Of a DNA stretch of 64,000 nucleotides, positions 6,189 through 57,260 are shown piece after piece (positions within the stretch are counted from its first letter, which is position 1; every line of letters starts with the position of its first letter). The DNA lies in assembly GCA_026393115.1 (NCBI GenBank), contig JAPLAU010000015.1:531-64530 (forward strand). The letters run 5' to 3'. The position numbers and the translations under genes are program-made. The notes under the pieces were generated by a model. The model was given only the letters and a program-made list of their open reading frames with translations, did not search any database and was not told the DNA's origin. Origin of the DNA: Actinomycetota bacterium. GTDB lineage: Bacteria > Actinomycetota > Actinomycetes > S36-B12 > CAIYMF01.

Positions 6189-6995
6189 ATGGCTGTGCAT
6201 GACCTCGTCTCCGCTCTGTCGTCAGCCACGTTGTTCGATCTTGAACACGATCGCTACACGGGCGCTGCAATCTACCCAGGACACTGGCCCGGCTTCGTGT
6301 ACACATTGCACCGGCACCACGAAACCGTCGAAGGTCAGCACCGTACGAGTGCGTCGGGCACGATCATGATGGCCGAGCACTCGGGCACACACATTGACGC
6401 GTTGTGCCACCAGGCACTCGACATGGAGTTGTTCGGCGGAATTCGAGTGACTCCAAGTGTCCAAACTCCTCGAGGCTTTACTCAGTTGGGTGTCGAGACA
6501 ATCGCGCCCATCATGCGTCGCGGTGTGCTGCTCGATGTCGCACGTGCGCGCGGGGTTGATTTCCTTGAAGCGGGTTACCTCGTGACCGCCGAAGATTTGC
6601 AGGCAGCTGTCGACGCGCACGGTGTCGTGATCGAAGAGGGCGACTGCATTCTCGTTCGCACCGGATGGGGACAGAACTTCGAAGACGCCGATGCCTACCT
6701 CGATGCGGCGGGAATCAGTGCAGAAGGTGCACAGTGGCTGGCTGACCGCAAACCGTTCCTCTGCGGTGCCGACAACGTGGCATTCGACTACCCCGACAAT
6801 GTCGACACTGAACTCGGGCTCCTGCCGTCGCACACCATTTTGATCGTGCGCAACGGCATCTATATTGTCGAGAACCTCAACCTCGAGGAACTCGCGCAAT
6901 CGGCACACAAGGAATTCCTCTTCCTATGTATGCCCCTCAAACTCCGCGGAGTCACGGGCTCACCCGTGCGTCCCGTGGCGATCGCACAGAACTAA
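6189..6995 (+). CDS. Cyclase-family (PF04199) metal-dependent hydrolase
   Basis: The 268-residue protein carries the canonical metal-binding motif HSGTHIDALCH (H64, H68, D70, H74) of the cyclase/kynurenine-formamidase family. Members hydrolyse amides, lactams or lactones using Zn2+ or Mn2+. The sequence ends with the usual LKLRGVTGSPVRPVAI strand. A good ribosome site (CAGGAAGG) precedes ATG 6189. Position between LhgO and a GlcG-like protein suggests it opens a lactone or amide intermediate. It is the most canonical of three family members in the window; the substrate is unknown. Confidence 0.87.
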   Translation: MAVHDLVSALSSATLFDLEHDRYTGAAIYPGHWPGFVYTLHRHHETVEGQHRTSASGTIMMAEHSGTHIDALCHQALDMELFGGIRVTPSVQTPRGFTQLGVETIAPIMRRGVLLDVARARGVDFLEAGYLVTAEDLQAAVDAHGVVIEEGDCILVRTGWGQNFEDADAYLDAAGISAEGAQWLADRKPFLCGADNVAFDYPDNVDTELGLLPSHTILIVRNGIYIVENLNLEELAQSAHKEFLFLCMPLKLRGVTGSPVRPVAIAQN

Positions 6996-24995: not shown

Positions 24996-25595
24996 TTAGG
25001 TTCGGGATCGAGTAGGTGAGGAGTCGGCACCGATCACGCTGAGTGCGAAATCGCAGTAGGTGCCAGCGAGAGTTCCTTCGCTCACTGGTCCATCAGGGCG
25101 GAACCATCGGGCGATGCCAATGCCCATGTCGATGATTGCGTAAGCCGCAAGGTTCGTTGATTGCGTACTGGCTCGACCTTCGGCAACGGCGTTTTCGATG
25201 AGAGTGCGCCAGAGTTCTGTGTAGTGGCGGCGCATTTCCTTCACTTGCGACTGCGCTGGCTCCTCGAGTGCGGCGACTTCGGTCATCGCAATCTTCGATT
25301 CGTGGGCGTAGCGCATGTGGTGGCGTACGTGCACCTCAAAACCTCGCCGGAACTTCTCGATCACATCATCGGTGGTGGCGGTGGCATCCTCGAATTCGCG
25401 AGTGATCAGTGCGACATCGCCTTCGATGATGTCGACGAGCAACTGCTGTTTGGAGTTGAGGTGGTTGTACAAACTTGGTGCGCGCATGTTGAGTCGAGCA
25501 GCAATCTCGCGCATGCTGGTGCCGTGATAACCCCGTTCGTAGAACAATTCGGTCGCCGCCTCTCGGATCTCGCGTGCGCGAGAGGGCTCGGTCAC
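24996..25595 (-). CDS. TetR-family transcriptional regulator (TetR2)
   Basis: A 199-residue TetR protein with AREIREAATELFYERGYHG, MREIAARLNMRAPSLYNHLN and SKQQLLVDII as its DNA-binding domain, similar in layout to fatty-acid and steroid repressors of actinobacteria. GTG 25595 follows AAAGGAA by about 7 bases. The promoter at 25651-25679 contains a 14-bp dyad with the CGTTCGTT box, so autoregulation is likely. It heads an operon with a crotonase and an HSD10-like SDR, opposite ligase 3 and the ACAD operon. Confidence 0.88.
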   Translation of the reverse strand: MTEPSRAREIREAATELFYERGYHGTSMREIAARLNMRAPSLYNHLNSKQQLLVDIIEGDVALITREFEDATATTDDVIEKFRRGFEVHVRHHMRYAHESKIAMTEVAALEEPAQSQVKEMRRHYTELWRTLIENAVAEGRASTQSTNLAAYAIIDMGIGIARWFRPDGPVSEGTLAGTYCDFALSVIGADSSPTRSRT

Positions 25596-25779: not shown

Positions 25780-25805
25780 TTGACCAAACTCACGTTCGTT
25801 AGTTC
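25780..25805 (+). promoter_or_regulatory. Promoter region of the ligase 3/ACAD operon with CGTTCGTT box
   Basis: TTGACC (25780-25785) is a good -35. CGTTCGTT (25793-25800) lies inside CTCACGTTCGTTAG, a 14-base imperfect dyad matching the one before TetR2. The -10 is uncertain. GGGAGG then ATG 25819 follow. Confidence 0.55.
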
Positions 25806-25818
25806 AGTGGGAGGACTC

Positions 25819-27393
25819 ATGCAGGGCGCGTCAAAGTACCGACTCTTCGACACTCTCGATCGCACCGGACGCACCCATCGTGCAGCCTCAACCGTGGCTA
25901 TCACTGCCGGTGGGCGAGATCAGTCCTTCGCCGAGCTCCGCGACCGTGCACTGCGGCTCGCTAACGGGCTCATCGGCCTCGGGGTGCGACCTGGTTCGCG
26001 TGTTGGTGTGCTGATGAGCAATCGTCATGAGTGGACCGAGGCGTTGTTCGCAGTCGCGGCGAGCGGCGGCGTCTGCGTGCCGATCAACGTGCTGCTGCGC
26101 GGGCTCGAGGCGGGCTACATCATTGACGATAGCGACGTTGACGTTTTGATCGTCGATGAACGTGGCGAGCAGCCACTCGCCGAACTCCCGAGGCTTCCTT
26201 CCACCATCATTACGGTGGGCGATGTTGTGGTGCCGGTTGGCGCCAACGTACGCACATTCGAGTCTGTGATTGAGTCAGGCGCTGCCGTGTATCCCAGCGT
26301 GCAGATTGGCGCCGAAGACGCCGTCATGACCTACTACACCTCGGGCACCACGGGCCGCTCAAAAGGCGCCACGCACTCGCATCAAGGCATCAACTGGAAC
26401 ACGATGTCGCAGGTCCACGATCTATCCGTGCGTTCCAACGATCGGTACCTAGTGGTTCCGTCGCTGTCGTGGGCAGCCGGATTCCACGACGTGACGATGG
26501 CATTGATGTGGAATGGCGGTACCAATGTGTTGATGCCGACTGGCGCGGCCACCATCGAGACGATCATCGATCAGGTGGTCGAGAATCGCATCACGCACAC
26601 TCTTCTGGTGCCAGTGTTGTTGCGCGAACTCGCGGCGAACCCGCCGTTGCTTGCTCGCCTTAGAGACAGCGAGTTGCGCTGGGTGCTCACGGGTGCCGAG
26701 CCGGTACCGGCAACTCTGACGAACGAACTCAACGCCGAATTGCCCGCGTGCGATGTGGTGCAGGGATACGGCATGTCGGAGTTTCCGCTCATTGCCTCGC
26801 TGCTGCGCCCGGAAGAGGCGGTCGAGCACGCCGGCAAGGCTGGTCGCCCCACGTCGATCACGTCGATCATGGTGCAGACAGCCGATGGCCAGATCACCGA
26901 TGTCGGTGAAGGCGAGATCCTCACGCGATCGCCAGCGGCCATGCTCGGATACCACGGAATGCCCGAAGCGACAGAAGAGGCATTCCGTGACGGGTGGTTC
27001 CACACAGGTGACACGGGTCGCCTCGATGAAGAGGGCTTCCTCGCGGTCACCGGCCGCCAGAAAGACATGATCATCTCGGGCGGGATGAACATCTACCCGC
27101 GCGAGATTGAGGACGTCATCATCGCTCAACTCGGTATTCGCGATGTAGCCGTCGTTGGTGTTCAGGACGATCGATGGGGCGAGGTGCCCGTGGTCGTGCT
27201 GCTCGCTAGCGCGGCGGGTTCGGCCGATGACGTGATGAGGGTATGCCAGGAACAGTTGTCGTCGTACAAGCGCCCTAAGCGTGTCATTGTGCGTGAGGAG
27301 CCATTCCCACGCACTCCCAACGGCAAGTTACTCAAGCGAGAGTTGGGTCCGTGGGCGCAGGAGCAGATCACGGGGTCTGCTGAGCCGCAGTAG
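25819..27393 (+). CDS. AMP-dependent acyl-CoA synthetase (ligase 3)
   Basis: This 524-residue ANL enzyme has YYTSGTTGRSKGATHSHQG as the A3 motif, QGYGMSEFPLIASLL, FHTGDTGRLDEEGFLAVTGR and the catalytic Lys in PRTPNGKLLKREL. ATG 25819 is preferred over upstream in-frame starts because GGGAGG ends 4 bases before it. It is the first gene of the operon ligase-ACAD-ACAD-thiolase-dehydratase, so it probably loads the acid that this beta-oxidation set degrades. Confidence 0.92.
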   Translation: MQGASKYRLFDTLDRTGRTHRAASTVAITAGGRDQSFAELRDRALRLANGLIGLGVRPGSRVGVLMSNRHEWTEALFAVAASGGVCVPINVLLRGLEAGYIIDDSDVDVLIVDERGEQPLAELPRLPSTIITVGDVVVPVGANVRTFESVIESGAAVYPSVQIGAEDAVMTYYTSGTTGRSKGATHSHQGINWNTMSQVHDLSVRSNDRYLVVPSLSWAAGFHDVTMALMWNGGTNVLMPTGAATIETIIDQVVENRITHTLLVPVLLRELAANPPLLARLRDSELRWVLTGAEPVPATLTNELNAELPACDVVQGYGMSEFPLIASLLRPEEAVEHAGKAGRPTSITSIMVQTADGQITDVGEGEILTRSPAAMLGYHGMPEATEEAFRDGWFHTGDTGRLDEEGFLAVTGRQKDMIISGGMNIYPREIEDVIIAQLGIRDVAVVGVQDDRWGEVPVVVLLASAAGSADDVMRVCQEQLSSYKRPKRVIVREEPFPRTPNGKLLKRELGPWAQEQITGSAEPQ

Positions 27394-27395
27394 TT

Positions 27396-28532
27396 ATGGA
27401 CCTCACGCTCAGCGCCGATGAGTTGGCGTTCCGCGACGATTTTCGCGCGTGGATCGCCGATCACCACCCAGGCTCGCCTCCGAGCAACGTCGAGGAGCGC
27501 TACTACTGGCGGCTTGAATGGCTGCGTGAACTCAACCGTGGTGGATTCGCGGCGATGCATTGGCCGAGCGAGTATGGTGGCCGCGGCGCAACGGCGATGC
27601 TCAACGCAGTGTTCTTCACTGAACTTGCGCGTGCGGGTGCGCCTATTCCGGCAAATCACATTGCGACCTTTATGGCTGGTCCCACAATCATGCAGTGGGG
27701 AACGCAGGAGCAGAAAGAGCGTTACCTGGCCCCAATGCTGCGCGCTGACAACGTATGGTGCCAAGGGTTCAGTGAGCCGGGGGCCGGGTCCGATCTTGCT
27801 GCAGTGGCGACATTTGCTGCACGTGAAGGCGATGAGTTCGTCGTTAATGGGCAGAAGGTGTGGACGTCGGAAGCGCAGTACGCGCATTTCTGTCTCTTGG
27901 TAACTCGCACTGATCGCTCGGTGGCCCAGCACAAAGGGTTGACGTATTTCATTCTTGATATGTCGAGCCCTGGCATCACGCGCCGCCCCTTGCGGCAGCT
28001 CACCGGTGAATCGGAATTCAACGAATTGTTTTTCGACAATGTGCGCATCCCGGCCAGTTCCGTCATCGGCGAGGTGGGAAATGGTTGGCGAGTGGCCATG
28101 ACCACGTTGATGCATGAGCGGTCGATGATTGGCGCCGGATACGGAATTCGACTGCGCAATTATCTGACCGTGGTTGAGTCGCATCTTCGTGCACACGGGC
28201 TACTCGACGATCCCATCGTTGCCGATCGGTTCACCGATCTTGAGATTCGCACACGAGCCTTGGAGTTGTCCGCGCTGCGCCAAATCTCCGAAGCGCAAGC
28301 ACGCGGAAGTGTGGGTTCGGAAGGGTCGATCCTTAAACTGATGTGGTCTGACACGTACTCGCGGCTGGCCGAGTTTGCAATTGAGACGGTTGGCCCGGAT
28401 GCGCTCGAAGATGCAAGTGGATGGGCGTGGGAGTACCTTCGCTCGCGCGCCTCAACAATCGAGGGCGGCACCTCCGACATCTTGCGTAATATCGTCGCTG
28501 ACCGTGTTCTCGGCCTACCGCGGGCCAGGTGA
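27396..28532 (+). CDS. Acyl-CoA dehydrogenase, catalytic-type subunit (alpha)
   Basis: A 378-residue ACAD with WCQGFSEPGAGSDLAAV (substrate/FAD loop), VNGQKVWTSEAQYAHFCLLV and RSRASTIEGGTSDILRNIV near the C terminus. The complete set of FAD motifs contrasts with the next, shorter ACAD. Such pairs form alpha2beta2 heterotetramers in actinobacterial steroid and side-chain degradation, and the same is inferred here. ATG 27396 is 2 bases after the ligase stop. Confidence 0.9.
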   Translation: MDLTLSADELAFRDDFRAWIADHHPGSPPSNVEERYYWRLEWLRELNRGGFAAMHWPSEYGGRGATAMLNAVFFTELARAGAPIPANHIATFMAGPTIMQWGTQEQKERYLAPMLRADNVWCQGFSEPGAGSDLAAVATFAAREGDEFVVNGQKVWTSEAQYAHFCLLVTRTDRSVAQHKGLTYFILDMSSPGITRRPLRQLTGESEFNELFFDNVRIPASSVIGEVGNGWRVAMTTLMHERSMIGAGYGIRLRNYLTVVESHLRAHGLLDDPIVADRFTDLEIRTRALELSALRQISEAQARGSVGSEGSILKLMWSDTYSRLAEFAIETVGPDALEDASGWAWEYLRSRASTIEGGTSDILRNIVADRVLGLPRAR

Positions 28533-28538
28533 CTGGCG

Positions 28539-29552
28539 ATGAGATTCATGCTGTCTGATGAACAGAGCGCCATTCAAGACATGGCACGCGAGGTACTTGC
28601 GGCCGAGTCGACTTTTGATCGAGTGCGTAGTGCGGGCGAAGAGCGTCAGTACGACAGTGAATTGTGGGCGCTCCAGCGATCGATGGGCTGGCCGGGTGTG
28701 GGCGTACCTCAACGGTGGGGTGGGCAGGGGCTCGGCTTGGTGGAGTTGTCTGTGATCGCTGAAGAGTGCGGCTATGCGTGCTCTTCTACGCCGTTGCTCG
28801 GCACCATCCTTGCCGCCACTTCACTCGTGAGTGCCGCTTCCAGCGAACAGTGTGAGCGGTACCTGCCGTCGCTCGCGGCCGGTGAAGTCAGAGGCGCTGT
28901 GGCGCTCACGGCAGACAGCACCCCGGTGCCCGACGCCGGTGAAGCCGGTCTGATCGTGGTTCTTGAGGGCTCGGGCGGCCGCGTCAGCCTGCAACCGGCG
29001 CAACCGGTCGAGACGATCGACCCCACACTGCGATATGGCCGCGTCGTAGACCCGTCTGCCGGTGAGCCCTTGAACCAATCGCCAATCGCTTACGACTCGA
29101 CGTTGGTCGTCGTGTCCGCACACCAACTCGGACTTGCGCAACGTGCGCTCGATTTGAGTGTCGCCTACACCTCGGTGCGTGAGCAGTTCGGTGTGCCGGT
29201 TGCGACCTTCCAAGCAGTGTCGCATCGGCTGGCCCAGGCGCACGTTGATCTCACTGCCGCGCGGTCGTTGGTGTATCACGCTGCGTGGGCTGTTCAGGTG
29301 GGCGACAGCGAGGCCTCGGCCTCAGCCGCGCGTGCCAAGGCGTGGCTTGCCGAGGCATCGCGAACAGTCACCGGATCGGCAATTCACGCACACGGAGGCA
29401 TCGGCTTTACTTGGGAAGCCAATCTGCATTGGCTGTTCAAGCGGGCCACCATGCTCGGCCCGTACCTCGGGGGTGCGCGACAGCATCGCAGCAGGTTACT
29501 CGACATGCTAGGCACTGCTCAGACCACGTCTCACGAAACGGATCACTCATGA
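28539..29552 (+). CDS. Acyl-CoA dehydrogenase-like partner subunit (beta)
   Basis: At 337 residues this is short for an ACAD. The N-terminal helical domain and the C-terminal part (VREQFGVPVATFQAVSHRLA, AIHAHGGIGFTWE) are present. The central beta domain is reduced and lacks the usual T-E-P-x-A-G-S-D loop and the W-x-T/S segment. This matches the partner subunit of heteromeric ACADs, which contributes FAD-binding residues but not the full active site. It begins 6 bases after the alpha-type gene, and its stop overlaps the thiolase start. Confidence 0.87.
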   Translation: MRFMLSDEQSAIQDMAREVLAAESTFDRVRSAGEERQYDSELWALQRSMGWPGVGVPQRWGGQGLGLVELSVIAEECGYACSSTPLLGTILAATSLVSAASSEQCERYLPSLAAGEVRGAVALTADSTPVPDAGEAGLIVVLEGSGGRVSLQPAQPVETIDPTLRYGRVVDPSAGEPLNQSPIAYDSTLVVVSAHQLGLAQRALDLSVAYTSVREQFGVPVATFQAVSHRLAQAHVDLTAARSLVYHAAWAVQVGDSEASASAARAKAWLAEASRTVTGSAIHAHGGIGFTWEANLHWLFKRATMLGPYLGGARQHRSRLLDMLGTAQTTSHETDHS

Positions 29553-30746: not shown

Positions 30747-32291
30747 ATGACGGTTGCCGATGCGCAGACGCGCACCACCATTGCACCGAACGGTCAGGTA
30801 CGACGCGTTGAATCAGCCGACGAGATCTGGGCTCGCATGCCTTACATCCGCAACGGTGGCGACTACCTCGAGTCGTTGCGTAACCGGGGCACGTCACTGT
30901 TTATGTTCGGTGAGCGCATCGAAGAACCGGCCGATCATCCGATCATCATTCCATCAATCAACGCATTGCGGGCGACGTATGACCTCGCCATTGACGAGCC
31001 TGATTTGGCTACGGCCCACTCGCCGCTCATTGACGACACCGTCAACCGCTTCCTGCACATTGTTGAAGGCCCTGATGACCTGCAGAAGAAGCACTCGATG
31101 CAGCGCAGGCTGGGCCAAGTCACCGGTACGTGCTTCCAGCGGTGTACCGGCCTCGACTCGATCTCGGTGATGCATTCGATTACCTACGACCTTGATGCCG
31201 CGAACGGAACCGAGTATCACGAGCGATTCCTGGCATTTCTTCGGCAGGCTCAGCGTCACAACATCCTGATCGCTGCCGGAATGACCGACCCGAAGGGTGA
31301 CCGCTCGAAGGCGCCATCCGAGCAGGCCAATCCTGACTTGTTCTTGCACGTGTCCGGACGCAATGACGAGGGCATCTTCATTCGTGGCGCGAAAGCGCAT
31401 ATGACTGGAGGGTGGAACCAGCACTGGATCTGTGTACTTCCGACGATGAACCTGCGCGAGTCCGACGCCGACTACGCCGTGGGTGTCATGGTGCCGGGCG
31501 ATTCCGACGGAATCACCTACATCTACGGCCGCCAGTCCTCTGATACCCGTGCGCTCGAGCCGGGAACGATGGACAAAGGTAACGCCGAGTACGGCGGCCA
31601 GGAAGTGCTCGTGTACTTCGACGACGTCTTCATTCCCTACGAGCATGTACTTCTCGATGGTGAATGGTCGATGGCGCAGACTCTCGTCTCCCGCTTCACG
31701 TCGTATCACCGAGCGAGTTACATCTGCAAGACCGGCCTTGGTGATGTGCTGATTGGCGCTGCGGGCGAGGTTGCCGATGCCAATGGTGTGTCGAAGGCCG
31801 CGCACGTGCGCGACAAGTTAGTCGAAATGACCCATTTGAACGAGACGATTGCTTCATCGGCGATCGCCTCGGCAGCCAAAGCCAATCAGCTCGATTCGGG
31901 TATCTGGATGAATGACGAAATGCTGGCCAACGTCTGCAAGCACAACGTCACCCGCTTCCCGTACGAGATTGCTCGACTTGCCCAAGATCTCGCGGGCGGA
32001 CTCATGGTCACGATGCCGTCAGAGGCTGACTTCCGTTCTGAGGAAGTGGGCGAGCTGCTCACTGAACTGCTGGCGGGCCGAGAGGGTGTGTCAACTGAGC
32101 ACCGCATGCGCATCATGCGATTGATAGAGAACCTCACGCTCGGCCGTAACGCCGTGGGCTATCTCACCGAATCGATGCATGGGGCCGGCTCGCCTCAGGG
32201 GCAACGAATCCAGATCCTGCGCGGAATGGACCTCGACACAAAGCGGGCACTGGCACGGGCCCTCGCTGGAATCGAGGACGATCCGTCGTGA
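30747..32291 (+). CDS. 4-hydroxybutyryl-CoA dehydratase-like flavoprotein (HpaB/AbfD family)
   Basis: The 514-residue protein belongs to the HpaB/AbfD fold. Unlike plain 4-hydroxyphenylacetate hydroxylases it has TCFQRC (C129-x3-C133) and YHRASYICKTGLGDVLIG (H321, C327). These match the four [4Fe-4S] ligands known for AbfD (two Cys, His, Cys) in order and approximate distance; the His-Cys spacing is one residue shorter than the AbfD numbering implies. AbfD dehydrates 4-hydroxybutyryl-CoA to crotonyl-CoA by a radical route. AAGGAGG precedes ATG 30747. It overlaps the racemase gene. A flavin monooxygenase role is the alternative. Confidence 0.8.
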   Translation: MTVADAQTRTTIAPNGQVRRVESADEIWARMPYIRNGGDYLESLRNRGTSLFMFGERIEEPADHPIIIPSINALRATYDLAIDEPDLATAHSPLIDDTVNRFLHIVEGPDDLQKKHSMQRRLGQVTGTCFQRCTGLDSISVMHSITYDLDAANGTEYHERFLAFLRQAQRHNILIAAGMTDPKGDRSKAPSEQANPDLFLHVSGRNDEGIFIRGAKAHMTGGWNQHWICVLPTMNLRESDADYAVGVMVPGDSDGITYIYGRQSSDTRALEPGTMDKGNAEYGGQEVLVYFDDVFIPYEHVLLDGEWSMAQTLVSRFTSYHRASYICKTGLGDVLIGAAGEVADANGVSKAAHVRDKLVEMTHLNETIASSAIASAAKANQLDSGIWMNDEMLANVCKHNVTRFPYEIARLAQDLAGGLMVTMPSEADFRSEEVGELLTELLAGREGVSTEHRMRIMRLIENLTLGRNAVGYLTESMHGAGSPQGQRIQILRGMDLDTKRALARALAGIEDDPS

Positions 32292-33445
32292 CCGACGCTG
32301 CGCGACGGCCACCACTGGCTGGCCTGCGGGTCATTGAGTTGGCCGGTATCGGGCCCGGTCCCTTCGCGGGCATGATGCTGGCCGATCTCGGAGCTGAGGT
32401 CATTACCGTCGACCGACTCGGTGGCAATCCGTCGGCGACGATCGGCCACAGCATTCTGTTTCGCAGTCGTCGCTCGGTGACTATTGATTTGAAGTCACCG
32501 CAAGGTGTAGAGACGTTGCTGCGATTGTGCGAGCGGTCGGATGCGTTGATGGAAGGTTTTCGGCCGGGTGTCGCAGAGCGTCTGGGCATCGGGCCCGACG
32601 AGTGCATGGCCCGCAACCCCGCGCTGGTGTACGGCCGCATTACCGGGTGGGGTCAAGAAGGTCCACTCGCGCGTTCGGCCGGGCACGACCTCAACTACAT
32701 CGCCCTTACCGGCGCACTGCATGCGATCGGTCGAGAAGGGCAGCCACCAACGGTTCCGCTTAACCTCATCGGTGACTTTGGTGGGGGAGGGATGCTCTTG
32801 GCATTCGGGGTTCTGGCAGGTGTGCTCAGCGCCCGTGCAGACGGTCGCGGAACCGTGATTGACGCGGCGATGATCGATGGCGCATCGGCGCTGATGGCGA
32901 TGTTTCACGGGCTACGGTCCGAAGGACTCTTCGACGACGAACGCGGAACGCACACTCTCGATGGGGGCGCTCATTTCTACGACGTCTACGAAACGGCAGA
33001 TGGTCGCTTCGTCAGTATTGGCGCGCTTGAACCTCAGTTCTACGTGCAGTTGTGCGATCTGCTCGATCTCGATGACGAGGTGCGCAACGCTCAGTACGAC
33101 CTCGTGCGCTGGCCGGAGTTTTCGAAGGGAGTCGCTGCGGCAGTGCAGCAACGAACTCGCGATGAACTCGACGCACTCTTTGCCGGATCCGATGCCTGCT
33201 ACGCGCCGGTGTTGGCCATGGAGGAATTGGCGCGGCACCCCCATCACGCCGCACGTTCAACTTTTGTGGTCGATGGTAATGACCTTCAGCCCGCGCCCGC
33301 GCCGCGGTTCGACGGTCAGCCGCCCACAGTTCCGACCCCACGACCCGCGTCAGGCATTCACACCATTGAAGTGCTGCGCGAGTGCGGATTCACCGAGGCA
33401 GAGATAGCGACCATGTCCGACAACGGCGTCATCGACGCGGTCTGA
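32288..33445 (+). CDS. Alpha-methylacyl-CoA racemase (CaiB/BaiF family)
   Basis: This 385-residue class III CoA-transferase-fold protein carries the racemase catalytic pair H133 (SAGHDLNYIALTG) and D163 (NLIGDFGGGGM), matching the His/Asp of characterised AMACR enzymes. It also has LAGIGPGPFAGMMLADLGAE and CYAPVLAMEE. It would epimerise 2-methylacyl-CoA so that S-specific dehydrogenases can act, implying a methyl-branched substrate. GTG 32288 overlaps the preceding stop (GTGA), coupling it to the dehydratase-like gene. A CoA-transferase role is less likely because the transferase Asp context is absent. Confidence 0.9.
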   Translation: MTDAARRPPLAGLRVIELAGIGPGPFAGMMLADLGAEVITVDRLGGNPSATIGHSILFRSRRSVTIDLKSPQGVETLLRLCERSDALMEGFRPGVAERLGIGPDECMARNPALVYGRITGWGQEGPLARSAGHDLNYIALTGALHAIGREGQPPTVPLNLIGDFGGGGMLLAFGVLAGVLSARADGRGTVIDAAMIDGASALMAMFHGLRSEGLFDDERGTHTLDGGAHFYDVYETADGRFVSIGALEPQFYVQLCDLLDLDDEVRNAQYDLVRWPEFSKGVAAAVQQRTRDELDALFAGSDACYAPVLAMEELARHPHHAARSTFVVDGNDLQPAPAPRFDGQPPTVPTPRPASGIHTIEVLRECGFTEAEIATMSDNGVIDAV

Positions 33446-33462: not shown

Positions 33463-34371
33463 ATGACCAACGCTTACGACGGTACGGGCGCCAACAGTCC
33501 GCAATGGTGGCCATCGCGATACGGAGCCGACGACGAACTTGGCTCGGCCAATGAACTCACTGCCGAACGCACCCTGGCAGCCTTGTCCATTCCGAAACAG
33601 GGGCGGGTGCTGCAGCTCGGACAGATGCTCACTGATCAGTCGCCCGGATACGGACAGCGATTTTTCAAGCAGGTGATCTTGGCGCACGAGACGGCGATGC
33701 CCATTTGCCCAGAAGGGTCGAGACTGACCTGCTTCGAAGAATCGGTCACCACGACATTCCAGATCGGCTCGCACCTCGATCTGCTGGGTCACATTGGTAT
33801 CGATGGACGTTTCTACAACGGCATTCATTACACCGACTTCTATACCCCAACGAAGTTGCTCAAGTTTGGCCCTGAGACGGTCCCGTCGTGGGTCACGCGC
33901 GGAGTGTGTCTTGATATTGCCGGCTTAATGGGCGTCGAGATGCTCGAGCCCACATTTGAGGTCACCCCCCAGCACCTCGAGCAGGCGTGCGAACGCCAAT
34001 CAGTTGAGGTGCGGGCCGGAGACGCGCTTTTGATTCACACTGGCTGGGGTGCGCTCTGGAATGTCGATGCCAAGCGATTCACCTCGGCTGAACCGGGTCC
34101 TGGCTGGGATGCCGCTCACTGGATCACCGATCGACATGTGTCGTTGGTGGGCGCTGACACGTGGGGTGTCGAAGTGTTCCCCACGGTTGACCCGTTGCGC
34201 GTTTTTGTCGCGCACCAGCACTGGCTTACCGAGACCGGCACTTACATCGCCGAAAATGTGAATACAGCCGAACTTGCTCGCGGCGGGCACTCAGAGTTCC
34301 TGTACGTGATGTCTCCGATCCGGGCGCAAGGATCCACCGGTTCGATGATCGCTCCAGTCGCGATTGTCTGA
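33463..34371 (+). CDS. Cyclase-family (PF04199) protein, second copy
   Basis: This 302-residue member has the metal-binding motif as QIGSHLDLLGH: the first His is replaced by Gln, while the following H-x-D-x3-H is kept. It shares GADDELGSANELT near the start, RGVCLDIAGLMG and IHTGWGALW with the family. A hydrolase acting on a cyclic amide, lactone or formamide is likely but the substrate is unknown. AAGGGAG precedes ATG 33463. It lies between the racemase and the fused E1 gene. Confidence 0.83.
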   Translation: MTNAYDGTGANSPQWWPSRYGADDELGSANELTAERTLAALSIPKQGRVLQLGQMLTDQSPGYGQRFFKQVILAHETAMPICPEGSRLTCFEESVTTTFQIGSHLDLLGHIGIDGRFYNGIHYTDFYTPTKLLKFGPETVPSWVTRGVCLDIAGLMGVEMLEPTFEVTPQHLEQACERQSVEVRAGDALLIHTGWGALWNVDAKRFTSAEPGPGWDAAHWITDRHVSLVGADTWGVEVFPTVDPLRVFVAHQHWLTETGTYIAENVNTAELARGGHSEFLYVMSPIRAQGSTGSMIAPVAIV

Positions 34372-34382
34372 GGGGCAGTCTT

Positions 34383-36374
34383 ATGGGCACTGTGGGCGAG
34401 TACTCAGCAGCGGAACTGCTGGAGATGTATCGACGCATGCGGCTCATTCGTCGATTCGAGCAGCGAACGGCTGAGTTGTATCGCGCCACCGAAGTTCCCG
34501 GCTTCGTGCACACCTCAATCGGTCAGGAGGCGACGGCTGTTGGCGCCTGTTGGCACCTCGAGACGACCGACGTCATCACGTCCAATCACCGCGGACACGG
34601 ACACTGCCTCGCCAAGGGTATGCAGCCGGGTCCGATGTTTGCCGAGCTCATGGGCAAGGATTCGGGAACCTGCCACGGCCGTGGCGGATCAATGCACATC
34701 GCCGATCCAGACATCGGTGTATTCGGAGCCAACGGCATCGTCGGCGCCGGCATTCCAATTGCGGTCGGTGCTGCCACCTCAATGCGGCTGCGCAACAACG
34801 GCAGGGTTGCGTTGTCGTTCTTCGGTGATGGGGCAGTTGCTCAGGGGGCGTTCCATGAAGGCGTGAACCTCGCCGCCGTCTGGAACCTGCCCATCGTGTT
34901 CGTGTGCGAGAACAACCACTACGCGGAATTCTCAAGCACAGCGTCGCAGCATCGCGTGAGTCTGGCTGAACGCGCACGTGGTTACGGCGTTGAGTTCATT
35001 GCCGTCGATGGCAACGACGTGCGTGCGGTGAGCGAAGCCACGGGACGGGCGATTGAGTCGGTGCGGTCTGGTGGAGCCCCCGTGATCGTCGAAGCTCTCA
35101 CGTATCGCTGGCATGGCCACTACGAGGGCGACCCCGAGAAGTATCGCGATCCTGAGGAACTGTCCGCGTGGAAAGAGCGTGACCCGTTGCTCGTCTGTAA
35201 GAGCGCTCTCACTGCTCTGGGCGTTGACTCAGCCCTCGTCGACGGCATTGACACCGAGGTTGAGTACGAGATCGACAGTGCCATTGAGCAAGCGCGGCAG
35301 GCCCCGCCGCCGCCGGTATCGAGTTTGATGGATTTCGTCGTCGACACTTCCGGTGACGGTGACGGTGGCGTTGAGCCCGAACCATTCGAGCCGAATGGCA
35401 CGTTCAAGATGATGCACGCGGTGCGTGAAGCCATTGAGAGCCAGATGCGTGTCGATCCAGAGGTCTTTATGGCCGGAATCGATATTGGGCTCGGTGGCAG
35501 TGTCTTCGGGCTCTTCCGAGGAATGCACGAAGAGTTTCCTGATCGTGTGCGCGATACCCCCATTTCTGAGACGGCTATTGTCGGCACGGCCGTCGGTGCG
35601 GCGATGGCGGGTATGAAACCAATCGTTGAAGTGATGTACCTCGACTTCATCGGCGTGTGCCTCGACCAGATCATGAACCAGGCGGCCAAGTTGCGGTACA
35701 TGACCGGCGGTCGAGCGCAGATGTCGCTGGTGATTCGTACTCAGATGGGTGCTGGGCGATCGTCAGGAAGTCAGCACTCGCAGAGTTTGGAAGCGATGTT
35801 GGCGCACATTCCTGGCTTGCGTGTGGTGATGCCGTCCAACCCTGCCGACGCCTATGGGCTGCTGCGATCGGCGATTCTCGACCCCAATCCGGTGGTGTTC
35901 ATCGAAAATCGGCTGCTCTACGGAATGACAGGCGACCGACCACCGGCCGACTACCTCGTTCCGATTGGCAAGGCGGCGATCGTGCGCCCCGGAACTGACG
36001 TCACCGTCGTCAGCTGGTCGCGCATGCTGCACGCCGCGCTTGAAGCGGCCGAGAATCTGGCCGGCGAAGGCATCGACGCCGAGGTCATCGACCTGCGCAC
36101 CATTGCGCCGCTTGATCGGGCAGCAGTGCTTGCCTCACTTGAGCGCACGCATCGTCTGGTCATTGTTCACGAGGCGGTTCGTGACTTCGGAGTCGGCGCC
36201 GAACTGGCGGCACTGGCGGCAGGGGAGGGCTTCGACAGTCTGCGGGCACCGGTGGTGCGCGTTGCTCCACCATTCACTCCGGCTCCCTACGCGCCAGCAC
36301 TTGAAGCAGAGTGGTTGCCTAACTCGTCGTCAATTGCCGATGCTATTCGCTCACTTGTGAGGCGAAATTCATGA
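34383..36374 (+). CDS. Fused alpha-beta E1 of a 2-oxoacid/acetoin dehydrogenase (ThDP)
   Basis: At 663 residues the protein joins an E1-alpha domain (about 1-320) and an E1-beta domain (about 340-663) through an acidic Gly/Pro linker (about 321-339). The alpha part has the thiamine diphosphate motif GDG (148-150) to NN (177-178), plus HGRGGSMHIADPD. The beta part has VFMAGIDIGLGGSVFGLFRG and RYMTGGRAQMSLVIRTQ. Such fusions act on acetoin, branched or other 2-oxo acids. No E2 or E3 gene is in the window, so it must share them or work alone with another acceptor. ATG 34383 follows GAGGGG. Confidence 0.9.
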   Translation: MGTVGEYSAAELLEMYRRMRLIRRFEQRTAELYRATEVPGFVHTSIGQEATAVGACWHLETTDVITSNHRGHGHCLAKGMQPGPMFAELMGKDSGTCHGRGGSMHIADPDIGVFGANGIVGAGIPIAVGAATSMRLRNNGRVALSFFGDGAVAQGAFHEGVNLAAVWNLPIVFVCENNHYAEFSSTASQHRVSLAERARGYGVEFIAVDGNDVRAVSEATGRAIESVRSGGAPVIVEALTYRWHGHYEGDPEKYRDPEELSAWKERDPLLVCKSALTALGVDSALVDGIDTEVEYEIDSAIEQARQAPPPPVSSLMDFVVDTSGDGDGGVEPEPFEPNGTFKMMHAVREAIESQMRVDPEVFMAGIDIGLGGSVFGLFRGMHEEFPDRVRDTPISETAIVGTAVGAAMAGMKPIVEVMYLDFIGVCLDQIMNQAAKLRYMTGGRAQMSLVIRTQMGAGRSSGSQHSQSLEAMLAHIPGLRVVMPSNPADAYGLLRSAILDPNPVVFIENRLLYGMTGDRPPADYLVPIGKAAIVRPGTDVTVVSWSRMLHAALEAAENLAGEGIDAEVIDLRTIAPLDRAAVLASLERTHRLVIVHEAVRDFGVGAELAALAAGEGFDSLRAPVVRVAPPFTPAPYAPALEAEWLPNSSSIADAIRSLVRRNS

Positions 36375-36417: not shown

Positions 36418-37182
36418 ATGAGCGACTCCGTCCTCATCGAGGATCGCGGTCCCGTACGCATCATCACCATCAACCGACCGGAGGTGCGTAACGCCATCAA
36501 CCGCGCGACATCGGAAGGCCTTGCGGCGGCAATGCACGACCTTGACGAGCGAGCCGATCTCACCGTCGCCATCCTCACCGGAGCCGGTGGTGGGTTTAGC
36601 GCGGGCATGGATCTCAAGGCCTTCGGCCGAGGTGAAGACCCCCATGTCGAGCCTGGTGGATTTGGTGGATTCACGCAGAAGCCACCGGCGAAACCCCTGA
36701 TTGCCGCAGTCGAGGGATTTGCGCTGGCGGGCGGATTCGAACTCGCGCTTGCCTGCGATCTAATTGTGGCGGCAGAGGATTCGCGCTTCGGAATTCCCGA
36801 AGTAAGTCGTGGGCTCGTCGCTGCAGCGGGAGGCCTGCTGCGCCTTCCTGTTCGTATCCCTCGCAACGTCGCGATGGAAATGGCACTCACCGGCCGCCCC
36901 ATCAGCGCGGTTCGTGCTCACGACATGGGGCTGGTCAACCGACTCGCCCCATCGGGTTCCGCGCTTGATGTCGCCATTGAGTTAGCGGGCGAAATCATTG
37001 TTAATGGGCCGATGGCACTCGCCGTCAGTAAGCGAGTGATTAACGATTCCGCTGACTGGCCTGACTCCGAAGCGTGGGTACGGCAGCACGAGTACGTCGT
37101 AGCGATTGAATCATCGGCTGATGCCCGTGAGGGTGCGCTCGCCTTCGTTGAGAAGCGAACTCCCGTGTGGACAGGTCACTAG
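36418..37182 (+). CDS. Enoyl-CoA hydratase (crotonase family)
   Basis: A 254-residue crotonase: VRIITINRPEVRNAINR, GAGGGFSAGMDLKAF, EGFALAGGFELALACDLIV and SRFGIPEVSRGLVAAAGG. The two oxyanion-hole segments are canonical. Only one of the usual two catalytic glutamates is obvious (in PEVS), as in several isomerase or hydratase variants. GAAGGGAAG precedes ATG 36418. It is followed 2 bases later by the 3-hydroxyacyl-CoA dehydrogenase, its natural partner. Confidence 0.92.
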   Translation: MSDSVLIEDRGPVRIITINRPEVRNAINRATSEGLAAAMHDLDERADLTVAILTGAGGGFSAGMDLKAFGRGEDPHVEPGGFGGFTQKPPAKPLIAAVEGFALAGGFELALACDLIVAAEDSRFGIPEVSRGLVAAAGGLLRLPVRIPRNVAMEMALTGRPISAVRAHDMGLVNRLAPSGSALDVAIELAGEIIVNGPMALAVSKRVINDSADWPDSEAWVRQHEYVVAIESSADAREGALAFVEKRTPVWTGH

Positions 37183-37184
37183 AA

Positions 37185-38168
37185 ATGACGACGATCTCCA
37201 CGATCGCCGTCATCGGTGGTGGCTACATGGGCGGCGGCATCGCGCAGGTCAGCGTGATGGCCGGGTACCCCTGCGTGATCGCCGACGCGACTGCAGAGGC
37301 GGCGCAGGCTTCGCTGGTTCGCCTCATCGACGAGGCTCGCATCTTTGAGGAGCAGGGACTCTTCGCCCCTGGTAGCACTGCGGTAATTGCCCAGGGAATT
37401 CGAGCGGCAGACAGTATCGAACACGCTGTTGCCGATGCCGATTACATTGTTGAGGCCGTCCCCGAGCGCATGGATATCAAGGCGGACGCTCTTGGACGTG
37501 CGAGTGCGGCAGCGCGGCCCGACGCGATCATTTCCTCCAACACATCAGCGATGCCGATTGAGAAACTAGCGGCGCTGGTAGTACGACCCGATCGATTCCT
37601 CGGCGTGCACTGGATGAATCCCGCACCCTTTGTTCCCGGTGTTGAGCTCATTCCTGCGTCCATGACGCGTCCGGATGTGGTCGAGGCGGCCGAGGCACTC
37701 ATTCGATCGGTGGGTAAGTCACCGTCGCGAGTCAGCGACCAGGCGGGATTCGTTGCCAATCGCCTTCAATACGCGCTTTTCCACGAAGCGGTGCGCATGG
37801 TCGAAGAAGGAAGTGCGACTCCGACTGAGATTGACGAGGTAGTCAGTAACTCATTCGGTTTTCGGCTCCCGTTCTTTGGACCCTTCGCCACAGCCGATAT
37901 GGCGGGTCTGGATGTGTACGTTGGCGCGTACGAAAGCTTTCATGAGGCGTACGGCGATCGGTTCGCGCCGCCCGCGCTGTTGCTCGATCGCGTGGCAGCG
38001 GGCGACATAGGGCTCAAGTCAGGTGGCGGATTCACCGGAATGGATGCGACGAAACTGGCCGACATCGTGCGGTACCGCAACCGCGCGTACGCGGCGCTCT
38101 CAGCATTGCGTGCCGAACTCGGACCAGTGCCCGGTCGTCGAACCGCCGACGATGGCCAAGCTCCGTGA
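37185..38168 (+). CDS. 3-hydroxyacyl-CoA dehydrogenase
   Basis: The 327-residue protein has an N-terminal Rossmann motif AVIGGGYMGGGIAQVSVMAG, SSNTSAMPIEKLA, GVHWMNPAPFVPGVELIP (catalytic His) and GFVANRLQYALFHEAVRMV leading into the C-terminal dimer domain. It oxidises 3-hydroxyacyl-CoA with NAD+. ATG 37185 starts 2 bases after the hydratase stop. It ends 5 bases from the convergent lactonase gene, so no terminator space exists and transcripts probably overlap. Confidence 0.92.
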   Translation: MTTISTIAVIGGGYMGGGIAQVSVMAGYPCVIADATAEAAQASLVRLIDEARIFEEQGLFAPGSTAVIAQGIRAADSIEHAVADADYIVEAVPERMDIKADALGRASAAARPDAIISSNTSAMPIEKLAALVVRPDRFLGVHWMNPAPFVPGVELIPASMTRPDVVEAAEALIRSVGKSPSRVSDQAGFVANRLQYALFHEAVRMVEEGSATPTEIDEVVSNSFGFRLPFFGPFATADMAGLDVYVGAYESFHEAYGDRFAPPALLLDRVAAGDIGLKSGGGFTGMDATKLADIVRYRNRAYAALSALRAELGPVPGRRTADDGQAP

Positions 38169-41811: not shown

Positions 41812-42765
41812 GTGACACAGCAACCGAATATTGAATTGGTGCGCGAGATGGCGCTGAAGTACCGCAACTGGGAACGCTGGGGTGCCGATGATCAACTCGG
41901 TTCGCTCAATTTCGTTACCGACGCAATGCGCGCGCACGCGATGACCTTGGCTCGCCGTGGCAAAGTCTTCTCACTCGCTCTGCCACTCGACGTCAACGGC
42001 CCCATGGTCGGTGCGCACGGCCGCGTCAACCCTTATCACTTCATGATTTGGGATGGTGGCGACTTTGACGCAGGAGTGCAGGACTTCATTCCCGCGATGC
42101 GCTACACCGACGATGCTGTCTTTCTTGTGCTGCAAAGCTCGACCCAGTGGGATTCGCTCGCGCACATCTTCTTCGATGGCCAGATGTACAACGGACACGG
42201 CCCTGAAAAGGTGTCGAGTCGCGGAGCATCAGTCAACAGCATGACCAACGTACGCGACAAGGCGGTAGGGCGCGGAGTGCTGCTCGATATCGCGCGTTAC
42301 AAGGGTTTGCCGTGGCTTCCGACCAGTTACGCGATCACCAAGGAAGACCTCGAGGGCTGCGCCGAGAAGCAAGGTGTTGAGGTCGGTGAGGGTGACTTCG
42401 TGCTGCTGCGAACCGGCCAGATGGCCGACCGCCGCGCGGCCGGTTCGTGGGGTGATTACGCCGGTGGTCCCGCGCCCGGTATGGGCATTACCTGCGCCGA
42501 CTACTTCTGCCCGCGCAATGTAGCCGCCGTTGCGACCGACACGTGGGGCACCGAGGTACTTCCGAACGAGACACCCGATGTCTTCCAGCCCCTGCACTGC
42601 ATCATGCTCGTCAACGCCGGCATCATCCTCGGCGAGATGTGGGACATGGAGGAACTCGCGGAAGATTGCGCGGCAGAAGGCACCTACGACTTCCTGCTCG
42701 TGGCGCCACCACTCACCATCACGGGTTCAGTGGGTTCGCCCGTGAATCCGCAGGTCATGCGTTAG
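41812..42765 (+). CDS. Cyclase-family (PF04199) protein, third copy
   Basis: This 317-residue member carries the motif as QSSTQWDSLAH: both early histidines are Gln while the Asp and last His remain, a recognised Q-W-D subfamily. It shares WGADDQLGSLNFVT with the second copy, plus RGVLLDIARYKG and LLRTGQMAD. GGGGAGGAAGG precedes GTG 41812. It probably hydrolyses a cyclic or amide intermediate of the same pathway as BKACE and the DUF6282 protein. Confidence 0.83.
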   Translation: MTQQPNIELVREMALKYRNWERWGADDQLGSLNFVTDAMRAHAMTLARRGKVFSLALPLDVNGPMVGAHGRVNPYHFMIWDGGDFDAGVQDFIPAMRYTDDAVFLVLQSSTQWDSLAHIFFDGQMYNGHGPEKVSSRGASVNSMTNVRDKAVGRGVLLDIARYKGLPWLPTSYAITKEDLEGCAEKQGVEVGEGDFVLLRTGQMADRRAAGSWGDYAGGPAPGMGITCADYFCPRNVAAVATDTWGTEVLPNETPDVFQPLHCIMLVNAGIILGEMWDMEELAEDCAAEGTYDFLLVAPPLTITGSVGSPVNPQVMR

Positions 42766-42804: not shown

Positions 42805-43686
42805 ATGCCTGGCAGTAAATACGACGATCTGACGCGCAGCATGCTGCGTGGCGCAATCGATATGCACATTCACTCAGCGCCTGACATCTTCCCTCGTTCC
42901 GTTGACGCCATTGAAGCGGCTCGGCAGGCCAAGGAAGCGGGGATGGAAGCGATCGTCCTCAAGAGCCATTCCACCGATACCGCCGCGCGGGCCGAGTTGG
43001 CGGCGACGCACACCGGGATGCAGGTGTACGGCGGGGTGTCGCTCAACTATCCAGTCGGCGGACTGAATCCGTATGCGGTGCTTGAGTCGGCTCGACAGGG
43101 TGGCCGGGTCGTCTGGTTTCCGACTCTGTGTGCCACGCACTTCTTGGCCCATGCCGAAAATGTGCCGGTACTGCGTGAAAAGTCGCCGGTTGGAAGTCCA
43201 GGCATCACGCTGACACGCGATGACGGAACCCTGCGCCCGGAGATTGACGAGGTGCTGAACCTGGTTCGCGAACACGACTTGGTGTTGTGCTCAGGTCACA
43301 TCACGCCGTCGGATGCTATTGCTGCCTTCACGCGAGCCAAGGAGATGGGCATTACGCGTTTGGTCGTCACGCACCCGCATGCCCTCTTCGTGGGTGCTGA
43401 GGTCGAGCAGATGAAGACGCTCGTCGCACTTGGCGCGATGAACGAAATGCACTACGCCTTTGTGACGGCCATCATCAATCCGCCGCAGACCATGGAGTAC
43501 ATCGCCGAGACCATTCGTGCGGTGGGAGTCGAAAGCTGCTACCTCGCGACCGACGGGGGTCAGAAGATCAACCCTGTTCCCGTCGAGGCACTGCGTCTGT
43601 TCATGGTCGGCATGCTCGAGCAAGGCTTCACCGAAGATGAAGTGCGCTACATGGTTGCTGATGCACCCCGCAAGATCCTGTTCTGA
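42805..43686 (+). CDS. DUF6282-family amidohydrolase-like protein
   Basis: The 293-residue protein opens GAIDMHIHSAPDIFPRSVDA, a metal-binding H-x-H near the start of a TIM barrel, and later has CSGHITPSDAIAAF, VVTHPHALFVG and CYLATDGGQKINP, together resembling PHP/amidohydrolase metal sites. DUF6282 members have no well-established activity. CAAGGAAC precedes ATG 42805. It follows the third cyclase by 39 bases and precedes a Dabb protein, forming a conserved-looking trio. Confidence 0.8.
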   Translation: MPGSKYDDLTRSMLRGAIDMHIHSAPDIFPRSVDAIEAARQAKEAGMEAIVLKSHSTDTAARAELAATHTGMQVYGGVSLNYPVGGLNPYAVLESARQGGRVVWFPTLCATHFLAHAENVPVLREKSPVGSPGITLTRDDGTLRPEIDEVLNLVREHDLVLCSGHITPSDAIAAFTRAKEMGITRLVVTHPHALFVGAEVEQMKTLVALGAMNEMHYAFVTAIINPPQTMEYIAETIRAVGVESCYLATDGGQKINPVPVEALRLFMVGMLEQGFTEDEVRYMVADAPRKILF

Positions 43687-56078: not shown

Positions 56079-57260
56079 ATGTCGTCAGTAGCGCTCACTG
56101 GTATCGGTTCGCTCGTTACCAACGACCCCACGGTGGGTGAGGGCAGTCTCGGCATGCTCACTGACGCTGCTGTGGTGATTGAGGGCGGTTCGGTCTCGTG
56201 GGTCGGGTCGGCGACGTTGCTTCCCGAAGGTACCGATTCCGTCGTCGATCTTGGGGGAGCGGCGGTACTTCCGGGCTTCGTCGATTCGCACGCGCACCTG
56301 ATCTTCGCTGGTGACCGCTGGCCCGAGTTTGAAGCGCGCATGACGGGTGAGCCTTACACCGCCGGGGGAATTCGCACCACGGTGTCGGCCACGCGCGCTG
56401 CCTCCGACGACGATCTGCGAGCGAATCTTGCGCGTCTGGCCGCTGAGTTGGCCGCCAGCGGCGTCACTACCTTCGAAAGTAAGAGCGGATACGGGCTTAC
56501 CCGGGCCGATGAAGCGCGAAGTTTGCGCATCGCTGGCGAAGTGACTCCGGAAACGACGTTCCTCGGCGCCCATGTGGTTCCTGCCGAGTACGCCGATCGG
56601 CCAGACGACTACGTGCGCCTGGTCATCGACGAGATGATTCCGGCGTGTGCCTCTCTGGCGCGTTGGATTGACGTGTTCTGCGATCGTGGTGCCTTCGATG
56701 CTGATCAGGCGCGGGCGATTCTTGAAGCCGGCATTGCTGCGGGAATGCAGCCGCGCCTGCACGCCAATCAACTGCAGCATGGCCCCGGTGCTCAACTGGC
56801 AGTGCAGCTCAACGCCGCGTCCGCCGATCACGTCACTCACTTGTCGGCGCAGGATGTCGAGGCCCTTGCCTCGAGTTCGACGGTGGCAACCTTGCTGCCA
56901 GGCGCTGAGTTCTCGACTCGCTCTCCCTACCCCGATGCGCGGGCTCTGATTGATGCCGGTGCCACCGTGGCGTTGGCGACCGACTGCAATCCTGGGTCGA
57001 GTTTCACCACATCGATGCCGCTCATGATTGCGCTGGCCGTGCGCGAGATGCGCATGTCGCCGGATGAAGCAGTGTGGTCGGCCACCGCGGGTGGAGCCGC
57101 AGCACTTCGGCGCGATGATGTAGGTGTCATTCGTGTAGGTAGTCGGGCCGATCTCGTTTCTTTGCGTGCACCTCATCATGTCCACCTCGCTTACCGCCCC
57201 GGCGTCGATCTTGTCGACCGGGTGTGGGTTGGCGGCCAGCAGATCAAGGAATCCGCATGA
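56079..57260 (+). CDS. hutI: Imidazolonepropionase
   Basis: This 393-residue amidohydrolase has [19 protein letters not shown] (metal H-x-H), [36 protein letters not shown] and [20 protein letters not shown], all HutI hallmarks. It hydrolyses imidazolone-5-propionate to N-formimino-glutamate using Zn2+ or Fe. ATG 56079 is 13 bases after hutU and its stop overlaps hutH. No hutG or hutF gene follows, so the formimino-glutamate step must be encoded elsewhere. Confidence 0.95.

What the first reader, a model, noticed from the sequence alone, without database searches (positions are those of the whole stretch)
30747..33445. A 4-hydroxybutyryl-CoA dehydratase-like enzyme coupled to a methylacyl-CoA racemase
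The flavoprotein keeps C129-x3-C133, H321 and C327, in positions matching the AbfD [4Fe-4S] ligands, so it is not a simple HpaB hydroxylase. Its gene overlaps that of an alpha-methylacyl-CoA racemase with intact His/Asp pair. Together with the kinase-ACAD pair, the window has two unrelated ways to deal with a 4-hydroxyacyl-CoA, which hints at methyl-branched 4-hydroxy acids as substrates. AbfD is oxygen-sensitive, yet the neighbours look aerobic.
Basis: partly seen in the sequence, partly recalled or inferred. Interest (0 to 1): 0.55.

Follow-up and report, generated by a model that had tools for sequence, protein, structure and literature searches.

The report
Radical dehydratase paired with a racemase
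A bacterium that probably lives with oxygen carries an enzyme related to those that remove water from 4-hydroxy acids by radical chemistry, and relatives in other bacteria often keep it next to the same racemase, which suggests the two work on one substrate.

Summary
ORF 30747-32291 is a 4-hydroxybutyryl-CoA dehydratase (4HBD) relative, 59% identical to the solved oxygen-tolerant 4HBD of Nitrosopumilus maritimus (6vjr) and about 53% to AbfD (1u8v). It is far from HpaB hydroxylases. C129, C133, H321 and C327 are conserved in 75 of 75 relatives. The "shortened" His-Cys spacing is usual (62 of 75) and is that of 6vjr, so it is no objection. The oxygen paradox largely dissolves, because an oxygen-tolerant branch is already known. 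The neighbour (32288-33445, 4-base overlap) is a close relative of mycobacterial alpha-methylacyl-CoA racemase with its His/Asp pair. New here: the pairing recurs. Within one bacterial 4HBD clade, 21 of 48 loci have such a racemase within 3 kb on the same strand (two phyla, both gene orders); outside the clade 0 of 16 do. The clade shares an N-terminal extension and 13 diagnostic residues, several beside the cluster ligands. Best reading: a 4HBD-type radical dehydratase of aerobes, partnered with the racemase, in a ten-gene CoA operon that takes a 4-hydroxyacyl-CoA to acetyl-CoA (or acetyl- plus propionyl-CoA). A 2-methyl-branched substrate is plausible but unproven. No activity was tested.

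The parts
24996..25595 (-). TetR-type regulator, divergent from the operon (184 bases between)
   Evidence: PF17932; gap
25780..27393 (+). acyl-CoA synthetase (first gene of the operon)
   Evidence: NF004837 383 bits, below its cut-off
27396..28532 (+). acyl-CoA dehydrogenase subunit 1
   Evidence: TIGR03204 245 bits; best solved relatives Tcur3483 6wy9/6wy8 and 4x28, 4x28 titled ChsE4-ChsE5
28539..29552 (+). acyl-CoA dehydrogenase subunit 2
   Evidence: NF050027 IpdE2 173 bits
29549..30721 (+). thiolase
   Evidence: NF005077 539 bits; 62-67% identical thiolases in Alcanivorax G412, G838, G911, G1067
30747..32291 (+). 4-hydroxybutyryl-CoA dehydratase-type flavoprotein, 514 aa; putative [4Fe-4S] ligands C129, C133, H321, C327
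   Evidence: 667 bits to 6vjr, 539 to 1u8v; model Z 47.4, 1.5 A over 437 residues to 6vjr; ligands in 75 of 75 relatives
32288..33445 (+). alpha-methylacyl-CoA racemase (CoA_transf_3 fold), His133/Asp163
   Evidence: PF02515; 378 bits to MCR 1x74; 4-base overlap with the dehydratase
33463..34371 (+). PF04199 putative cyclase family protein
34383..36374 (+). fused E1 alpha-beta of a 2-oxo acid dehydrogenase
   Evidence: PF00676, PF02779, PF02780 in one ORF
36418..37182 (+). enoyl-CoA hydratase
   Evidence: NF006100 391 bits, above its cut-off of 282
37185..38168 (+). 3-hydroxyacyl-CoA dehydrogenase (last gene of the operon)
   Evidence: PF02737 and PF00725
19095..20291 (+). APH-family kinase (part of the kinase-ACAD pair; outside the operon)
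   Evidence: PF01636 172 bits
20330..21556 (+). acyl-CoA dehydrogenase (other half of the pair)
   Evidence: PF00441, PF02770, PF02771

Best explanation
30747-32291 encodes a 4HBD-type FAD/[4Fe-4S] radical dehydratase of a distinct clade found mainly in bacteria that I recall as aerobes, and the racemase beside it is its functional partner. In the operon an acyl-CoA ligase activates the acid; the racemase inverts a C2-methyl centre when one is present; the dehydratase takes the unactivated C3 proton and the C4 hydroxyl from a 4-hydroxyacyl-CoA through a flavin/ketyl radical to give a 2-enoyl-CoA; hydratase, 3-hydroxyacyl-CoA dehydrogenase and thiolase in the same operon finish it to acetyl-CoA (or acetyl- plus propionyl-CoA). 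Shown: family, ligands, fold, operon anatomy, recurrence of the pairing. Inferred: catalysis, cluster, substrate, order of steps, oxygen tolerance. The radical mechanism is known for AbfD and is transferred by homology (recalled). Parts: 4HBD-type dehydratase about 0.93; functional link to the racemase about 0.65; methyl-branched natural substrate about 0.35.
For: 59% identity to 6vjr, titled 'Oxygen tolerant Archeal 4hydroxybutyrylCoA dehydratase'. Model (mean pLDDT 81.2) superposes on 6vjr at 1.5 A over 437 residues (Z 47.4) and on AbfD at 1.9 A over 442 (Z 44.8), against Z 32.7 or less for HpaB types; the aligned range 33-474 holds all four ligands. Ligands plus Y325 and K328 in 75 of 75 relatives. 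Ten genes on one strand, gaps of -4 to 43 bases. Racemase within 3 kb, same strand, in 21 of 48 loci of the clade (19 of 43 with 3 kb of flank on both sides) and in 0 of 16 other 4HBD loci; downstream in the window genus and Patulibacter, upstream in Alcanivorax types, G838 and G964. In 293 genomes of the Alcanivorax order, 14 of the 15 best racemase matches are in the 18 genomes that have the dehydratase (Fisher p 1.6e-19, not corrected for kinship).
Against: 27 of 48 clade loci have no racemase within 3 kb, among them Haliea, Saprospiraceae and three of the four Thermoleophilia-type loci L003-L006. With a wider sample the linked racemases are not an exclusive clade: racemases of genomes without the dehydratase fall among them, 8 state changes on 61 rows, whereas a first tree of 37 rows had suggested one clade. 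Many of the 21 linked loci are Alcanivorax kin, so independent cases are about five. In most Alcanivorax loci msrA/msrB genes stand between the two; in G838 an opposite-strand ORF does. In most relatives the other operon genes are absent nearby. No metal, activity or oxygen data.
Confidence: 0.6

Rival explanations
1. Plain 4-hydroxybutyrate catabolism: the ligase makes 4-hydroxybutyryl-CoA, the dehydratase gives crotonyl-CoA, and hydratase, dehydrogenase and thiolase finish it. The racemase is a fellow traveller that serves other methyl-branched acids.
For: All five needed enzymes lie in the operon; both solved relatives are named 4HBD; 27 of 48 clade loci lack a nearby racemase.
Against: The racemase is the recurrent metabolic neighbour in two phyla, in both orientations; the operon also holds a two-subunit acyl-CoA dehydrogenase and a fused E1 that this route does not need; clade-specific residue changes sit beside the ligands.
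Confidence: 0.25
2. It mainly works as a 3-enoyl to 2-enoyl-CoA isomerase in beta-oxidation of branched or unsaturated chains, using the isomerase activity that 4HBDs also have.
For: 6vjr is filed as vinylacetyl-CoA delta-isomerase, and titles cited in PMC7078158 and PMC8364193 name the dual activity. The first subunit of the dehydrogenase pair is nearest Tcur3483 and 4x28.
Against: Crotonase-type isomerases do this without a radical enzyme (recalled); residues thought to be needed for dehydration (ligands, Y325, K328, E475) are kept.
Confidence: 0.1
3. An HpaB-type flavin hydroxylase (aromatic monooxygenase).
For: It scores in Pfam HpaB_N/HpaB and weakly in HpaB equivalogs.
Against: NCBIfam HpaB-1 134.7 bits against a cut-off of 480.2, HpaB-2 54.2 against 885.2; HpaB structures about 20% identical, rmsd about 3 A; the full cluster ligand set is conserved.
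Confidence: 0.02
4. Part of an autotrophic 3-hydroxypropionate/4-hydroxybutyrate cycle.
For: Nearest solved enzyme is from N. maritimus, whose cycle uses it (recalled).
Against: The operon looks catabolic (ligase, dehydrogenases, thiolase, TetR); the rest of the cycle was not searched for; the gene is patchy, 3 of 394 genomes of the class.
Confidence: 0.03

Closest known systems
Nitrosopumilus maritimus 4-hydroxybutyryl-CoA dehydratase (PDB 6vjr)
   Same: 59% identity, same four ligands, same H-x5-C spacing, Z 47.4 and 1.5 A over 437 residues
   Different: The window protein has an N-terminal extension of about 33 residues and clade-specific residues (M219, G222, A323, S140, V141, A177, G178); it sits in a catabolic operon with a racemase
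Clostridium aminobutyricum AbfD (PDB 1u8v)
   Same: About 53% identity by my alignment (50-51%), same ligands and conserved Tyr/Lys/Glu, same fold
   Different: AbfD has one more residue between His and Cys and comes from an anaerobe (recalled); same residue differences as above
Mycobacterial 2-methylacyl-CoA racemase MCR (1x74, 8rmw)
   Same: 378 bits over 350 residues, His and Asp kept, GHD(I/L)NY and GDFGGG motifs
   Different: MCR is not known to me to partner a 4HBD (recalled); here the start codon overlaps the dehydratase stop
HpaB / two-component flavin monooxygenases
   Same: Same superfamily fold, Z 28.9-32.7
   Different: About 20% identity; scores far below HpaB cut-offs

Membership tests
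4-hydroxybutyryl-CoA dehydratase (4HBD/AbfD) | Four [4Fe-4S] ligands: three Cys and one His at the AbfD positions (C99, C103, H292, C299, recalled) | tested here: met
   C129, C133, H321, C327 align with 6vjr and 1u8v and are kept in 75 of 75 relatives
4-hydroxybutyryl-CoA dehydratase (4HBD/AbfD) | Fold and sequence closer to solved 4HBDs than to other flavoproteins | tested here: met
4-hydroxybutyryl-CoA dehydratase (4HBD/AbfD) | Conserved Tyr, Lys and Glu near the cluster (AbfD Y296, K300, E455, recalled) | tested here: met
   Y325 and K328 75 of 75; E475 73 of 75 with two gaps
4-hydroxybutyryl-CoA dehydratase (4HBD/AbfD) | Bound FAD and [4Fe-4S], dehydration of 4-hydroxybutyryl-CoA | not testable with these tools
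   Needs purified protein
Oxygen-tolerant 4HBD | Activity survives air | not testable with these tools
   Only inferred from the nearest solved enzyme and from a P450 in the same genome
Alpha-methylacyl-CoA racemase | Catalytic His/Asp pair | tested here: met
   H133 and D163 align with MCR (MCR numbers recalled)
Alpha-methylacyl-CoA racemase | Closer to racemases than to class III CoA-transferases | tested here: met
   378 bits to MCR against 139 bits to the best transferase
Alpha-methylacyl-CoA racemase | Racemisation of a 2-methylacyl-CoA | not testable with these tools
   Needs assay
HpaB 4-hydroxyphenylacetate 3-hydroxylase | Score above the curated HpaB equivalog cut-offs | tested here: not met
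   134.7 of 480.2 and 54.2 of 885.2 bits

The most novel reading that the evidence does not exclude
Aerobic bacteria share a mobile dehydratase-racemase module for chiral 2-methyl-4-hydroxyacyl-CoAs. One exact candidate is 4-hydroxy-2-methylbutyryl-CoA: an isoprenoid chain hydroxylated at its ethyl end (omega-hydroxyphytane, or dihydrophytol with its own C1 alcohol), degraded by beta-oxidation from the isopropyl end, ends at this compound with C2 in either configuration. The racemase would set C2, the 4HBD would make a 2-methyl-2-butenoyl-CoA, and the operon's hydratase, dehydrogenase and thiolase would give propionyl- plus acetyl-CoA. The clade's altered residues beside the ligands would fit the extra methyl group.
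Probability: 0.25. Interest if true: 0.7.

Novelty: new variant of a known kind. Interest (0 to 1): 0.5.

Why it matters
4HBD is known to me (recalled) mainly from fermenting clostridia and from archaeal CO2 fixation, and is held to be slow, difficult radical chemistry. A separate bacterial clade in Alcanivorax, Haliea, Saprospiraceae and actinobacteria, with a recurrent racemase partner, would put this chemistry into aerobic catabolism, give more enzymes for learning how a radical [4Fe-4S] enzyme survives oxygen, and offer a new substrate class and a testable step in the breakdown of isoprenoid or omega-hydroxylated chains.

Tried and rejected
The claim that dehydratase-linked racemases form one exclusive clade: a 37-row tree suggested it (96/90, one change), but adding 24 more racemases from the Alcanivorax order broke it (61 rows, 8 changes). 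I dropped the claim and keep only linkage and co-occurrence.

Omega-hydroxylation in the window's own genome as support for the isoprenoid idea: only one P450 passed E 1e-30, and its best solved relatives are a putative P450, LUT5 and CYP175A1, with no CYP153 name among the 60 shown; the single P450 of G838 is nearest CYP120. Two FA_desaturase-family proteins are in the genome; whether either is AlkB was not tested. No support from here.

Thiolase as a third module member: 62-67% identical thiolases occur in G412, G838, G911 and G1067, adjacent to the dehydratase only in G838; elsewhere they stand apart, and Patulibacter G409 has none at E 1e-90. Not claimed.

Literature: no held paper has both 4-hydroxybutyryl-CoA dehydratase and methylacyl-CoA racemase, nor the looser terms matched anywhere; none has Alcanivorax with acyl-CoA racemase. 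Alcanivorax with 4-hydroxybutyryl-CoA gave six papers, seen only as a search listing; some searches were also seen as listings. The library lacks most subscription papers and bioRxiv, so 'not reported' holds only for these searches. Seen as passages: PMC8364193, PMC7078158, PMC10173188. PMC4292473 and PMC524839 are not held.

Whole-model Foldseek rmsd of about 12 A to 6vjr: a low-confidence C-terminal stretch (466-492) is probably misplaced in the single-chain model; in the trimmed alignment (33-474) the fit is 1.5 A. Distances between ligands could not be measured, since no coordinates are given.

Full report
Observation. ORF 30747-32291 (+, 514 aa) has a strong ribosome site before its ATG and carries C129, C133, H321 and C327. 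The next ORF, 32288-33445, overlaps it by four bases and starts with GTG.

What the flavoprotein is. phmmer against solved structures gives 6vjr at 667 bits and AbfD (1u8v) at 539 bits; the best hydroxylase is at 112 bits. 6vjr is titled 'Oxygen tolerant Archeal 4hydroxybutyrylCoA dehydratase (4HBD) from N. maritimus'. The HpaB equivalog models score far below their cut-offs. The predicted structure (23 sequences, mean pLDDT 81.2, pTM 0.84) superposes on 6vjr with Z 47.4, 1.5 A over 437 residues and on AbfD with Z 44.8, 1.9 A over 442; hydroxylases reach Z 28.9-32.7 at 2.8-3.6 A. The aligned range 33-474 includes all four ligands. Over 75 distinct relatives the ligands, Y325 and K328 are invariant, and E475 is present in 73 with two gaps.

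The His-to-Cys spacing of six is shared with 6vjr and with 62 of 75 relatives; 13 have seven, as AbfD does. So it does not speak against cluster binding. On oxygen: the nearest solved enzyme is named oxygen tolerant, and a review passage says that HP/HB-cycle enzymes are oxygen-tolerant while the DC/HB 4HBD is inactivated (PMC10173188, passage seen). Tolerance of the window enzyme itself is inferred only.

The clade. Trees place the window protein in a fully supported bacterial clade with Alcanivorax, Haliea, Saprospiraceae and Solirubrobacterales-type actinobacteria (Patulibacter, Svornostia), apart from anaerobe, Anaerolineae and other actinobacterial 4HBDs. The actinobacterial rows sit among the gammaproteobacterial ones, so transfer between phyla is likely. 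The gene is patchy in the window's own group: 2 genomes of its genus, none of the other 15 genomes of its family with a close match (one 27% match, G009), 5 of 40 relatives in all, and 3 of 394 genomes of the class at E 1e-100. Members carry an N-terminal extension with a recurring ExAxxRWxRxxxI-like stretch, and 13 positions that are at least 90% uniform inside (23 rows) and rare outside (15 rows): 74, 136, 140, 141, 143, 177, 178, 219, 222, 234, 323, 331, 382. Four lie within ten residues after C133, one between H321 and C327, and 219/222 flank T220, which corresponds to AbfD T190 (recalled). This hints at a changed pocket but shows no function.

The racemase. It matches MCR at 378 bits and the best class III CoA-transferase at 139 bits, with H133 and D163 in place.

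The pairing. A racemase at 52-91% identity lies within 3 kb on the same strand in 21 of 48 clade loci (19 of the 43 with full flanks) and in none of 16 other 4HBD loci. Gene order differs: dehydratase then racemase in the window genus (overlap) and Patulibacter (169 bases); racemase then dehydratase in Alcanivorax types (160-1904 bases), G838 (1676) and G964 (106). In most Alcanivorax loci two methionine sulfoxide reductase genes lie between (families checked in one locus; cluster membership). Independent cases are about five, since Alcanivorax dominates. Taking as a rough figure one to four racemase genes in 4 Mb, chance would put one within 3 kb in well under 1% of loci (my estimate, no call). 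In 293 genomes of the Alcanivorax order, 18 have the dehydratase, and 14 of the 15 best racemase matches are in those 18, even where the genes are far apart (Fisher p 1.6e-19, not corrected for kinship). Against: 27 of 48 loci are unlinked, and the wider racemase tree mixes linked and unlinked rows. In the clade's other loci I looked at, 4HBD neighbours are mostly unrelated genes, so the racemase is the one recurrent metabolic neighbour found.

The operon. Ten genes run on one strand with gaps of -4 to 43 bases: ligase, two acyl-CoA dehydrogenase subunits, thiolase, 4HBD, racemase, cyclase-family protein, fused E1, enoyl-CoA hydratase, 3-hydroxyacyl-CoA dehydrogenase, behind a divergent TetR. 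It contains all steps from a free 4-hydroxy acid to thiolysis. The first dehydrogenase subunit is nearest Tcur3483 and 4x28 (4x28 is titled ChsE4-ChsE5); that these serve steroid side-chain breakdown is recalled.

Mechanism and substrate. By homology the enzyme removes water from a 4-hydroxyacyl-CoA by flavin/ketyl radical chemistry (recalled from AbfD work). Why a racemase? A C2-methyl group would make C2 chiral, next to the proton that the dehydratase must take, so the wrong epimer would be a dead end. One natural source that fits exactly is the tail of an omega-hydroxylated isoprenoid chain (novel case; my own inference). Support from an alkane hydroxylase in the window genome was looked for and not found. 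The simpler reading, 4-hydroxybutyrate catabolism with the racemase as bystander, stays open.

Verdict. Observation confirmed; interpretation partly supported; the recurrent pairing and the bacterial clade are what is new. Interest 0.5.

Noticed in passing
   Followed up: partly
window 34383-36374: E1 alpha and beta of a 2-oxo acid dehydrogenase fused in one 663-residue ORF, inside the operon, with no E2 or E3 identified among the operon's ten genes.
   Followed up: no
window 6189-6995, 33463-34371, 41812-42765: Three PF04199 putative-cyclase family genes in one 64 kb window.
   Followed up: no
window 57224-58777: Aromatic amino acid lyase (PF00221, 601 bits).
   Followed up: no
window 42805-43686: DUF6282 protein, family of unknown function.
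   Followed up: no
L020 8600-9666 and most other Alcanivorax loci: msrA and msrB sit between racemase and dehydratase; possibly repair of oxidised methionine beside a radical enzyme, possibly chance.
   Followed up: partly
L004: Record titled Bifidobacterium breve carries a 4HBD that groups with Patulibacter and Svornostia, and its genome was drawn in the class of Patulibacter: the title looks like a mislabelled MAG.
   Followed up: partly
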